A DNA stretch of 64,000 nucleotides from Corynebacterium striatum ATCC 6940 (lineage in GTDB: Bacteria > Actinomycetota > Actinomycetes > Mycobacteriales > Mycobacteriaceae), in NCBI RefSeq assembly GCF_000159135.1, contig NZ_GG667528.1:25358-89357 (forward strand), read 5' to 3'. The notes beneath the pieces are model-generated. The model ran no database searches. It worked only from the letters and a program-made list of their open reading frames with translations, and was not told the DNA's origin. Position numbers and translations under genes: made by a program. Shown here piece by piece: positions 14,851-17,312 of this stretch; within the stretch, counting starts at the first letter, position 1, and every line of letters starts with the position of its first letter.

Positions 14851-15693
14851 CTAAAGCAGCCCGGCCTGTCGACGCAGCTGGTGTCCGTGATCCACAGGTC
14901 CGTGCCCGTGTCCGACGCGCAGATCATCGGCGTTTTCAATGGCTTCATGCAACCATGCGGTGGACCACTCAAGAGCGTCCGGCAGGGTTTCCCCCGCGCC
15001 AAGGCGTGCGGCTAGTGCCGACGAGAGCGAGCAGCCGGTGCCGTGCGTATTTTTCGTGTCTACCCGCGGGCTTGAAACCCGGCAGAGCACTCCTTCTGGA
15101 CCCACAGCGGCGTTGTCTGCGTGGCCTGCCTGCAAGTGACCGCCTTTGGCGATGACATAGGTGCCCGTTTCGCTGGCCCAGTCCTGGGCTATCGAAATCG
15201 CCTCTTCGAGACTGCTCGCCTGCGGCGTCGACGTTAGCACCGCAAGTTCTTTGAGGTTAGGCGTGATGACGGTGACCTGGCGGCACAGCTCCCGGACTGC
15301 GGCTTCTGCCTTCTCGTCGAGGAGCCTATCCCCGCTAGTGGCCACCATGACAGGGTCCAAGACAACTGGGGTATTTGGGGCGAGTTCGTCCAGGAAGCGA
15401 GAAACACTGGCCACAATGTCCGCGGTGCCGAGCATGCCGATCTTCACTGCGTCAACCGCGACGTCGTCAAGCACTGCGTCAAACTGCTCCTGCAGGAACG
15501 ATAGAGGGGGAGTGTGCACCGCACGCACTCCCTGCGTATTTTGCGCCACCAAAGCCGTGACCACCGACATGCCGTAGGCTCCTGCGGCCATAAAAGACTT
15601 TAGGTCGGCTTGGACGCCGGCACCGCCCGTGGGGTCCGTTCCGGCAATGGTCAAAACGCGTGGCAAAGTGCCACGTGGATCCGTGGATTCCAC
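14851..15693 (-). CDS. thiD: Hydroxymethylpyrimidine/phosphomethylpyrimidine kinase
   Basis: A 280-residue ribokinase-fold kinase of thiamine biosynthesis. It phosphorylates hydroxymethylpyrimidine and then its monophosphate. Motifs: LTIAGTDPTGGAGVQADLK near the N-terminus, GAYGMSVVTALVAQNT, DPVMVATSGD, and the anion-hole/active-site stretch KNTHGTGCSLSSALAA. The start is a GTG at 15693 whose ribosome binding site (GAAGGGA) is part of the TPP riboswitch aptamer, so translation should be repressed by thiamine pyrophosphate. No other thi gene is in the window. Confidence 0.95.
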   Translation of the reverse strand: MESTDPRGTLPRVLTIAGTDPTGGAGVQADLKSFMAAGAYGMSVVTALVAQNTQGVRAVHTPPLSFLQEQFDAVLDDVAVDAVKIGMLGTADIVASVSRFLDELAPNTPVVLDPVMVATSGDRLLDEKAEAAVRELCRQVTVITPNLKELAVLTSTPQASSLEEAISIAQDWASETGTYVIAKGGHLQAGHADNAAVGPEGVLCRVSSPRVDTKNTHGTGCSLSSALAARLGAGETLPDALEWSTAWLHEAIENADDLRVGHGHGPVDHGHQLRRQAGLL

Positions 15694-15773
15694 AACTATC
15701 CCTTCGCTAGTACTAACTGAGTGCAGGTTCTTAGGGTCTAATCTCAGCCGTTTTCAACGGCACCCCTTGTTGT
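15692..15773 (-). promoter_or_regulatory. TPP riboswitch (THI element) controlling thiD
   Basis: On the minus strand the conserved TPP aptamer elements appear in order: GGGGTGCC, GGCTGAGAT, ACCC, GAACCTG, and finally GCGAAGGGATA. The outer P1 helix is ACAAC (15769-15773) with GTTGT (15692-15696). The thiD GTG begins inside the last base pairs of P1, and GAAGGGA serves both as a conserved aptamer segment and as the ribosome binding site. Direct occlusion of the ribosome by the TPP-bound aptamer is the likely mechanism. Confidence 0.93.
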
Positions 15774-15861
15774 AAGTTTTGAGGTTAACAAAAAGCACTA
15801 TCTGGCGGAGCTAAATTGTGGCAGATTCGGCAGAATCAGTAGCTTGAGAACAAAACAGAAA

Positions 15862-15907
15862 CCGCCCCCGCGTGAGCAAACCTAAAAGCTTGGCCAGGCG
15901 GGGGCGG
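15862..15907 (-). terminator. Terminator of ndh
   Basis: 10-bp G/C stem CCGCCCCCGC / GCGGGGGCGG. On the minus strand it is followed by TTTCTGTTTTG. It lies 64 bp beyond the ndh stop codon. Confidence 0.8.
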
Positions 15908-15971
15908 GATGCAGGATGGCTGGGAGGCGGCGCTGAAGTGCGCGCCTGGCCCGTCATCGGCGTGACTTCAT

Positions 15972-17312
15972 TTACTTATTCTTGTTGATGAAGTTGCGAG
16001 CGATGCGCTGCTGATCGGTGATCTCCAGGTTGCCGCGGTCGCGGGAAATCATGTTCTGGATCCAGTTGACAGCAACAGTGGTGCGGTTGCGGAAGCCAAG
16101 GACGTACATGATGTGCAAGCCCATCCAGGAAACCCATGCCGGGAAACCGTCGAACTCGGTCTTGCCCATCTTCACAACAGCGTTGAAGCGGGAGATGACG
16201 GCCATGGAGCCCTTGTCGAAGTACTCGAATGCCTCGTGCTCGTTGGCGGTGGACTCCTCATCGACCTTTGCCTTGATGAGCTTGGCAACGTGTGCGCCAC
16301 CCTGGATAGCAACCTGTGCTACGCCTGGCAGGCGGTTCAGGGAGATCATGTCGCCGACCATGTAGACGTTGTCGTGCTGGCCCACGGTCAGGTCGTCGTT
16401 GACGGAGACGCGGCCAGCGCGGTCTGCTTCGACGCCTGCTTGGTCAGCAACCATCTTGCCCAGCGGGGAAGCGGACACACCAGCGGACCAGATCTTGGTT
16501 GCGCCCTCGAGGGTGACAACGTCCTCGTTCTTCATGTTCTTGTAGGTGACAGCGTCCTCGGTGACGTCGGTAACCATAGCGTTCAGACGTACGTCGACGC
16601 CGAGACGCTCGAGGGAGCGCTGAGCCTTGCGGCCAAGGCGCTTGCCGAACGGCGGCAGTACCTGCGGCGCACCATCCAAGAGGTAAATCTTGGCGCTGGT
16701 GGTGCCGTAGTTGGAATACTGGTCGCGCAGCGTGCGGTTTGCAAGCTCGGCGATCTGGCCGGTTAGCTCCACACCGGTTGGGCCAGCACCAACGATGATG
16801 AAGGTAAGGAGGCGCTCGCGCTCGACAGGATCGTCAACAAACTCAGCCTTTTCGAAGGCAGACACGATGCGGGAGCGCAGCTCAAGTGCGTCATCCAGGG
16901 TCTTCATGCCCGGCGCGAACTCAGCGAAGTGGTCGTTGCCGAAGTAAGACTGGCCGGCACCAGCAGCTACGACGAGGGAGTCGTATGCGAAAGTACGGCT
17001 AAAACCGTCGAGCTCAGCGGTAACGGTCTGATCCTCGATGTTGATATCGGTTACTTCGCCGTTAACGAAGTGGGCGTTATCCTGGCCGCGCAGCAGCTGA
17101 CGGGTAGAAGGAGCAATCTCACCGGCGGAGATCATGCCGGTTGCTACCTGGTACAGCATCGGCTGGAACAGGTGGTGGTTCTTCTTGTCAATCAGGGTGA
17201 TCTCGACGTCAGCATTCTTTAGCTGCTGTACTGCGTTGAGACCGCCAAAGCCTGCGCCGATAACGACTACGTGGTGGCGGCCGCCGGCTGGGCGGTAAGG
17301 GGTTTCAGCCAT
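15972..17312 (-). CDS. ndh: Type II NADH dehydrogenase (NDH-2)
   Basis: A 446-residue single-subunit, non-proton-pumping NADH:menaquinone oxidoreductase attached to the inner face of the membrane. Two dinucleotide-binding folds are present: FAD at VVIGAGFGGLNAVQQL (residues ~15-30) and NADH at IVGAGPTGVELTGQIAEL (~172-189). The C-terminal FAD motif is DNVYMVGDMI. The C-terminal ~60 residues contain the amphipathic membrane-anchoring region. It is transcribed divergently from the Cfa/UfaA-like gene; the same neighbourhood is found in C. glutamicum. Confidence 0.95.
   Translation of the reverse strand: MAETPYRPAGGRHHVVVIGAGFGGLNAVQQLKNADVEITLIDKKNHHLFQPMLYQVATGMISAGEIAPSTRQLLRGQDNAHFVNGEVTDINIEDQTVTAELDGFSRTFAYDSLVVAAGAGQSYFGNDHFAEFAPGMKTLDDALELRSRIVSAFEKAEFVDDPVERERLLTFIIVGAGPTGVELTGQIAELANRTLRDQYSNYGTTSAKIYLLDGAPQVLPPFGKRLGRKAQRSLERLGVDVRLNAMVTDVTEDAVTYKNMKNEDVVTLEGATKIWSAGVSASPLGKMVADQAGVEADRAGRVSVNDDLTVGQHDNVYMVGDMISLNRLPGVAQVAIQGGAHVAKLIKAKVDEESTANEHEAFEYFDKGSMAVISRFNAVVKMGKTEFDGFPAWVSWMGLHIMYVLGFRNRTTVAVNWIQNMISRDRGNLEITDQQRIARNFINKNK

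What the first reader, a model, noticed from the sequence alone, without database searches (positions are those of the whole stretch)
15692..15773. TPP riboswitch whose aptamer contains the thiD ribosome binding site
The conserved segments of a THI element are all present, and the thiD start codon begins in the last base pairs of the P1 helix. The GAAGGGA that should bind the ribosome is itself one of the conserved aptamer segments. There is no expression platform: ligand binding should occlude initiation directly. Direct sequestration is known for some actinobacterial THI elements, but an overlap with the start codon this close is a compact case.
Basis: partly seen in the sequence, partly recalled or inferred. 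Interest (0 to 1): 0.6.

Follow-up and report, generated by a model that had tools for sequence, protein, structure and literature searches.

The report
TPP riboswitch containing thiD ribosome site
A vitamin B1-sensing RNA switch sits directly on the start of the thiD gene of a Corynebacterium, so that the RNA that binds the vitamin cofactor is also the place where ribosomes must land; this is a well-made but ordinary example of a known type of switch.

Summary
Rfam's TPP model matches window 15777-15681, minus strand, at 60.8 bits (gathering score 54.3). The thiD frame opens with GTG at 15693 (ThiD). GTG lies 5 nt after GAAGGGA (15705-15699), whose AGG is the 3' strand of aptamer helix P4, and inside a possible 7-bp P1. 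A rival TTG start at 15666 has no Shine-Dalgarno pairing above background.

It is not exceptional. In Corynebacterium, 27 of 32 thiD genes with a nearby TPP aptamer start 4-13 nt after the same aptamer segment; elsewhere in the order 20 of 28 TPP loci look alike (no control). [quoted passage not shown]). Mapped C. glutamicum 5'-UTRs end inside the TPP match at 3 of 5 genes (PMC3890552).

Added: a -10-like box abuts the aptamer in 33 of 38 thiD leaders, suggesting a leader that is almost only aptamer. Unresolved: folding calculations show no open unliganded state. Nothing was tested with ligand.

The parts
15681..15777 (-). TPP riboswitch aptamer (RF00059), full model length, without P3a
   Evidence: cmscan 60.8 bits, gathering 54.3, E 1.8e-9; best of three TPP matches in its own genome, the others 60.1 bits (thiC) and 44.9 bits
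15690..15696 (-). 3' strand of P1 (GUUGUGG), includes the GTG start codon; pairs with 15769-15775 (UUACAAC)
   Evidence: sequence; helix search: 7 bp here, 9 bp in the closest relative L039, 6 bp in L046, 7 bp in L070, L071, L194 and L234
15769..15775 (-). 5' strand of P1
   Evidence: as above; predicted transcription start at about 15775-15776 (inference from the -10-like box)
15699..15705 (-). GAAGGGA: conserved aptamer segment (AGG, 15703-15701, is the 3' strand of P4, paired to CCU 15727-15725) and thiD Shine-Dalgarno
   Evidence: alignment; P4 pairs kept in 29 of 29 aligned thiD leaders; SD:anti-SD duplex -9.3 kcal/mol
15691..15693 (-). thiD start codon GTG, 5 nt after GAAGGGA
14851..15693 (-). 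thiD, hydroxymethylpyrimidine/phosphomethylpyrimidine kinase, 280 aa
   Evidence: TIGR00097 262.7 bits against a cut-off of 204.95
15782..15790 (-). TGTTAACCT, extended -10-like box (hexamer TAACCT 15787-15782) next to the aptamer
   Evidence: TAnnnT at -18 to -23 from GGGG in 30 of 30 thiD leaders of one set and 3 of 8 of a second; the sigma-70 consensus scan found no promoter here
15675..15693 (-). predicted hairpin over the start codon in the unliganded RNA (GUGGAAUCCACGGAUCCAC), competes with outer P1
   Evidence: prediction only, a similar one in L039, not seen in the L070/L194 lineage

Best explanation
It is a TPP riboswitch that works by direct translation attenuation. The leader of thiD is predicted to begin at or near the first base of P1 and to contain little besides the aptamer. 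In the conserved aptamer fold the SD bases AGG pair with CCU in helix P4 and the GTG start codon is paired in P1. TPP binding, which stabilises P4/P5 and P1 (established knowledge), should therefore hide both the SD and the start codon and stop ThiD synthesis when TPP is plentiful; without TPP these helices are weak (P4 3 standard pairs, P5 4 pairs with a bulged C, P1 rich in A-U and G-U) and a 30S subunit can capture the site. Shown: the aptamer, the overlap, the conservation of the geometry and of the core pairing. Inferred: ligand binding, start of transcription, and the translational switch itself.
For: Rfam match over threshold. thiD directly downstream, identity over a curated cut-off. 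Start 4-13 nt after the aptamer SD in the ThiD frame in 27 of 32 loci; the 32 come from 136 thiD loci examined, of which 76 showed an aptamer in the stretch fetched. Published C. glutamicum mean SD spacing is 7.7 +/- 2.7 nt (PMC3890552, passage). SD duplex -9.3 kcal/mol, equal to the ordinary AAGGAG leader (-9.1) of the C. aurimucosum-type thiD, which has no aptamer; 5.3% of random window 20-mers are as good. Cells paired over 29 leaders: P2 and P4 100%, P5 98.3%, P3 96.4%; covariation score of the whole structure 0.279 against 0.133 for shuffles, 0 of 500 as high. Own 5' and 3' P1 strands pair better than strands swapped between loci, 4 of 2000 permutations as good (relatedness not corrected). 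No terminator-like site between aptamer and early thiD on the minus strand. Barrick and Breaker 2007 describe this class for TPP riboswitches.
Against: Folding does not show a switch: unliganded, the SD is 0.41 unpaired and the start codon only 0.02 unpaired; with the aptamer fold forced, 0.50 and 0.00; the forced fold lies 8.7 kcal/mol above the free ensemble, so the model predicts a closed start codon in both states. Over the 24 loci folded, the SD is 0.40 unpaired free and 0.48 forced, the start codon 0.31 and 0.24. The 151-nt leader folds no better than shuffles (z -0.82, 35 of 200 as good). In one search two measures do not exceed the shuffles (pairs with change on both sides 14 against 12.5, 98 of 500 as high; further pair types 33 against 36, 457 of 500 as high), and P1 in one fixed register pairs in only 38.8% of cells (registers shift between lineages). 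At least two start-codon bases are in P1 in only 8 of 24 loci, so this is not needed for the class. No ligand, toeprint or expression data.
Confidence: 0.85

Rival explanations
1. A TPP riboswitch with a hidden expression platform: a hairpin in the first codons (15693-15675) competes with P1, so that switching is between P1 and this hairpin rather than plain occlusion by the aptamer.
For: The hairpin is predicted in the free fold; local energy -16.2 kcal/mol in the window, 3.2% of codon-order shuffles as low; the closest relative L039 can form a similar one with changed inner pairs; L046 also has strong local structure (4.4% of shuffles, 0.2% of synonymous versions as low).
Against: With synonymous versions as control, 15.0% are as low in the window. 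Not unusual in L039 (19.9% of shuffles) or L191 (32.9%); in L070, L071, L194 and L234 97-99% of shuffles are as low, that is, these are less structured than chance. The hairpin also covers the start codon, so it makes a poor ON state.
Confidence: 0.1
2. Transcriptional control by premature termination (intrinsic or Rho) coupled to the riboswitch.
For: A predicted hairpin 15674-15660 is followed by GCGUUUUG, and other TPP riboswitches work this way (established knowledge).
Against: No terminator-like site on the minus strand between 15693 and 15500 in the scan; the only minus-strand hit (15879-15862) is upstream of the aptamer. The aptamer abuts the coding sequence, leaving no room for an ordinary terminator platform. 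Rho sites were not looked for.
Confidence: 0.05
3. A TPP aptamer relic that no longer binds TPP and is kept only as a ribosome binding site.
For: SD function alone could preserve the 3' part; many thiD genes of the genus have no aptamer (none found in the fetched stretch for 60 of 136).
Against: The aptamer parts are kept here, including bases far from the SD, and GGGGUGC and GCUGAGA are invariant in the 29 aligned leaders (these were picked as having an aptamer). Eight leaders that first looked 5'-degenerate all match RF00059 over its full length, seven of them with a 44-77-nt insertion in P3.
Confidence: 0.03

Closest known systems
TPP riboswitch / THI element, Rfam RF00059
   Same: Sequence and secondary structure over the full model, thiamin gene downstream
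   Different: Lacks the optional P3a stem; P5 has a bulged C; start codon reaches into P1
Direct translation attenuation class of TPP riboswitches (Barrick and Breaker 2007, PMC2258182; passages seen; its reference 48, recalled as Rodionov et al. 2002, was not read)
   Different: Nothing of principle; the passages shown to me do not discuss a start codon within P1
C. glutamicum thiC, thiM and cg1227 TPP leaders (PMC3890552 Table 2, passages seen; differences computed by me)
   Same: Mapped 5'-UTRs end 2, 7 and 9 nt before the end of the Rfam match and start within 3-9 nt of its beginning, so the leader is nearly only aptamer
   Different: Other genes; thiD is not among the five TPP genes listed there, and for thiE and cg0825 the 5'-UTR ends 1 and 57 nt past the match
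thiD leaders of other Corynebacterium species (L039, L046, L070, L123, L163 and others)
   Same: Same aptamer-SD-start spacing (27 of 32), same position of the -10-like box (33 of 38)
   Different: Start mostly ATG (18 of 27) and mostly outside P1 (16 of 24); here GTG inside P1

Membership tests
TPP riboswitch (RF00059) | Covariance score over the curated gathering score | tested here: met
   60.8 against 54.3 bits
TPP riboswitch (RF00059) | Conserved core: GGGGUGC, UGAGA, GAACCUG, (A)GGGA, helices P1-P5 | tested here: met
   Alignment; 29-leader alignment and pair counts. P5 has a bulged C; the P1 pair nearest the core, A15768-A15697, is non-standard
TPP riboswitch (RF00059) | Upstream of a thiamin biosynthesis or transport gene | tested here: met
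   thiD, TIGR00097 262.7 bits against 204.95
TPP riboswitch (RF00059) | Binds TPP | not testable with these tools
   No experiment
Direct translation attenuation | RBS lies within the conserved aptamer core | tested here: met
   GAAGGGA 15705-15699 holds the P4 3' strand; SD duplex -9.3 kcal/mol, 5 nt before GTG
Direct translation attenuation | No terminator or separate sequestor | tested here: inconclusive
   No terminator-like site; a predicted start-codon hairpin, not conserved, cannot be excluded as a sequestor
Direct translation attenuation | Ligand lowers translation initiation | not testable with these tools
   The free-energy model does not discriminate the two states

The most novel reading that the evidence does not exclude
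In this and a few other Corynebacterium lineages the start codon itself is an aptamer base: the whole 5'-UTR, from the first transcribed base (outer P1) to the start codon (outer P1 on the other side), is the TPP aptamer, so that one ligand-stabilised fold hides SD (P4) and start codon (P1) together with no non-aptamer leader bases at all. Such minimal leaders may have arisen more than once (P1 UUACAAC/GUUGUGG here, CGCAAC/GUUGUG in L046, CACGACA/UGUCGUG in L070 and L194).
Probability: 0.4. Interest if true: 0.35.

Novelty: new member of a known kind. Interest (0 to 1): 0.2.

Why it matters
It is a clean natural example of a riboswitch whose sensing domain and output are the same bases, useful as a minimal model: a predicted leader of about 82 nt that can be tested by toeprinting. 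The same geometry in 27 of 32 nearby-aptamer thiD leaders of the genus shows that it is a standard solution for thiD rather than an oddity, and related species with an aptamer-less thiD and an ordinary SD give a natural comparison.

Tried and rejected
Downstream TTG starts (15666, 15654): SD duplex -3.8 and -2.6 kcal/mol, no better than random 20-mers (mean -4.3); rejected as the main start, though only 5 of 10 differences to L039 in codons 1-9 are at third positions, so coding of codons 2-9 is not proven by the substitution pattern. In L039 the corresponding TTG has a better SD (-6.4).

Fossil aptamers: eight loci (L110, L119, L142-L146, L149) looked 5'-degenerate because my model R1 (built with an RNAalifold structure of only 11 pairs) misplaced 5' ends. 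Rfam matches all eight over its full length, 4 over and 4 under the gathering score, seven with long P3 insertions; L110 it aligns with a short P3, although a further GGGGTGC lies upstream. Idea dropped.

Coding-region hairpin as a conserved platform: not conserved. Terminator: none found. The consensus sigma-70 scan found no promoter; the -10-like box rests on conserved position alone, in related, not independent, leaders; 5 of 38 have the box only further up (-34 to -38).

Rows left out: alignment A3 holds 29 of the 38 nearby-aptamer thiD leaders (L236 and the eight named above left out). One search folded 24 of those 29, with start offsets that I assigned (within 2 nt corrected by the script). 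One search used 33 genus loci and 29 of 30 order loci (L217 not given; L229 gave no SD pattern, so 28 were scored), with no chance control; its 16 of 33 mixes different genes. Alignment A1 had mixed strands and was redone as A2 with 30 of its 33 loci (L011, L017, L020 dropped). One search showed that my structure fits A2 poorly in P1 and P2 (10-29 of 30 pairs), so no model was built from it. One search used a structure string that I had mis-set; one search replaces it. One search stopped with an error after printing 31 loci, 5 of them without a 5' anchor; the remainder is. The search of named genomes with ThiD gave only 4 loci.

Papers: PMC3890552, PMC2258182 and PMC8079986, passages only; all others as search listings. 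Nine searches of the open-licence library (several lists capped) showed no title or abstract start about a Corynebacterium thiD riboswitch; full texts of the listed papers were not checked for it, and Rodionov 2002 was not looked up.

Full report
What is there. On the minus strand, window 15777-15681 matches Rfam RF00059 over all 105 model positions at 60.8 bits (gathering score 54.3, E 1.8e-9). The same genome has two more TPP matches, in front of thiC (60.1 bits) and in front of a 207-aa frame followed by an ECF-type ATPase (44.9 bits, under the cut-off). The thiD frame 14851-15693 opens with GTG at 15693 and passes the curated cut-off for HMP-P kinase. The genus is Corynebacterium: the 4 named relatives of this ThiD are Corynebacterium, and the contig of C. 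aurimucosum DE0410 and that of 'same genus' genome G056 have the same length, 89,237 bases.

Anatomy (read and the alignment). P1: 15775-15769 with 15696-15690, 7 bp with two G-U pairs. P2: 15767-15764 with 15736-15733. P3: 15761-15757 with 15751-15747. P3a is absent. P4: CCU 15727-15725 with AGG 15703-15701. P5: 15721, 15720, 15718, 15717 with 15710-15707, C15719 bulged in Rfam's alignment. GAAGGGA is 15705-15699, then five bases, then GTG 15693-15691. So the SD is partly the 3' strand of P4 and the start codon lies in P1.

Which start codon. The GTG and its spacing are kept in the closest relative, L039 (81% DNA identity over the matched 233 bases), and the spacing is kept widely (below). 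The substitution pattern in codons 1-9 against L039 is not decisive: 5 of 10 changes at third positions.

Survey of thiD in the genus. ThiD was found in 135 of 151 genomes at E <= 1e-60, 136 places; I examined 136 stretches (30, 106). A covariance model of mine found a TPP aptamer in 76 of 136, some of them cut by the end of the stretch. In 31 of these, and in L129, the match ends within 130 nt of the conserved ThiD TIAG motif; in 43 it ends 525-1670 nt upstream, 38 of these at 1361 nt or more; L095 had no motif. In 27 of the 32 near cases an in-frame start lies 4-13 nt after the aptamer's GAAGGGA-type segment: 18 ATG, 7 GTG, 2 TTG. The five exceptions are L129, L147, L166, L167, L168. In eight loci the aptamer match ends 8-20 nt before the motif, closer than the 29 nt here. 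So the window's arrangement is the rule for thiD leaders with a near aptamer, not an extreme.

Beyond the genus. Among 28 scored TPP loci of other genera of the order, 20 have a frame of at least 100 aa starting 3-13 nt after the same segment; among 33 genus loci in front of mixed genes, 16. No chance control was run for these two counts, and the loci are the best-scoring ones returned plus the three of the own genome.

Is the start codon in P1 by design? Over 29 aligned leaders the core helices are kept almost perfectly, with compensating changes (P2 100%, P3 96.4%, P4 100%, P5 98.3% of cells paired; covariation score 0.279, shuffles 0.133 +/- 0.012, 0 of 500 as high; slid versions 0.068-0.131). 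Two other measures of the same call do not exceed the shuffles (pairs with a change on both sides 14 against 12.5; further pair types 33 against 36). P1 varies in register and length: in one fixed register only 38.8% of cells pair. Letting each locus find its own helix, own strands pair better than strands swapped among loci (mean score 11.8 against 10.5 +/- 0.4, 4 of 2000 as good; relatedness not corrected). At least two start-codon bases are in P1 in 8 of 24 loci, which by their P1 sequences look like about four lineages. In the other 16 no start-codon base is in the P1 found.

Promoter. In 30 of 30 leaders of one set a TAnnnT hexamer sits 18-23 bases before GGGG, in 24 of 30 as TGnTAnnnT; in a second set of eight, 3 of 8, the other five having it only at -34 to -38. 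The background rate is 0.0029 per base over all loci. Here the box is TGTTAACCT, 15790-15782, which would start transcription near 15775-15776, at the first base of P1 (inference). The consensus scan found no promoter in 15500-16000. Published C. glutamicum data agree in kind: for thiC, thiM and cg1227 the mapped 5'-UTR ends 2, 7 and 9 nt before the end of the Rfam TPP match, for thiE and cg0825 1 and 57 nt past it, and transcripts start within 0-9 nt of the match's beginning (PMC3890552 Table 2; the differences are mine).

Mechanism. [quoted passage not shown] The locus meets the anatomical criterion. Against an easy reading: in free-energy folding the start codon is closed with or without the aptamer fold (0.02 and 0.00 unpaired), the SD is 0.41 and 0.50 unpaired, and the forced aptamer fold is 8.7 kcal/mol above the free ensemble; over 24 loci the SD means are 0.40 and 0.48, the start-codon means 0.31 and 0.24. 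Such models lack tertiary contacts, ligand energy and the ribosome, so this neither proves nor excludes the switch, but it gives no positive support. The closed free state comes from a hairpin in the first codons, 15693-15675. In the window 3.2% of codon-order shuffles and 15.0% of synonymous versions fold as low; in L039 19.9% and 38.9%, in L191 32.9% and 84.4%, in L046 4.4% and 0.2%, and in L070, L071, L194 and L234 97-99% and 84-94%. I treat it as incidental, with about 10% for a real role.

Evolution. In six C. aurimucosum-type loci (L040, L041, L043, L045, L047, L051) no aptamer was found; thiD has an ordinary AAGGAG followed by GTG or ATG, and by eye the gene before it ends like the gene before thiD in the window. 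That neighbour (window 15972-17312, minus) I call ndh from memory; its NCBIfam matches are all below their cut-offs. So the aptamer leader seems to be lost or gained as a unit together with the SD.

Verdict. The finding is real and correctly read in its main points; the mechanism is known for TPP riboswitches of this phylum, and the closeness is typical. What may deserve a note is the apparently aptamer-only leader with the start codon inside P1.

Noticed in passing
L147:307-409 (-) and the 90 nt downstream: In this thiD leader the ATG 8 nt after the aptamer SD opens a 22-codon frame whose stop overlaps the thiD ATG (ATGA): the riboswitch may control a leader peptide that is translationally coupled to thiD.
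   Followed up: partly
L166, L167, L168 (323-424, minus): The aptamer SD runs into an ATG at once (GGAGGGATG / GGAGGAATG) opening 90-, 90- and 21-codon frames out of the ThiD frame, while in-frame thiD starts lie 81-87 nt further on.
   Followed up: partly
L143, L144, L146, L149 (60 nt), L142 (44 nt), L119 (65 nt), L145 (77 nt): thiD TPP aptamers with long insertions at the tip of P3; the first four are over the Rfam gathering score, the other three under it.
   Followed up: partly
L040, L041, L043, L045, L047, L051: thiD behind what looks (by eye) like the same neighbour gene as in the window, but without a TPP aptamer; an ordinary AAGGAG leader instead.
   Followed up: partly
window 15907-15852 (-): Perfect 10-bp inverted repeat CCGCCCCCGC/GCGGGGGCGG followed by TTTCTGTTTT after the upstream gene (called ndh from memory): likely its terminator, which would make thiD a separate transcript (sequence; a shorter stem there is listed).
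   Followed up: no
L003:1585-2208 (+): Frame of 207 aa starting 5 nt after a sub-threshold TPP aptamer (44.9 bits), no NCBIfam match, followed by an ECF-type ATPase (below its curated cut-off): probably part of a thiamin-related transporter (ykoE-like is from memory).
   Followed up: no
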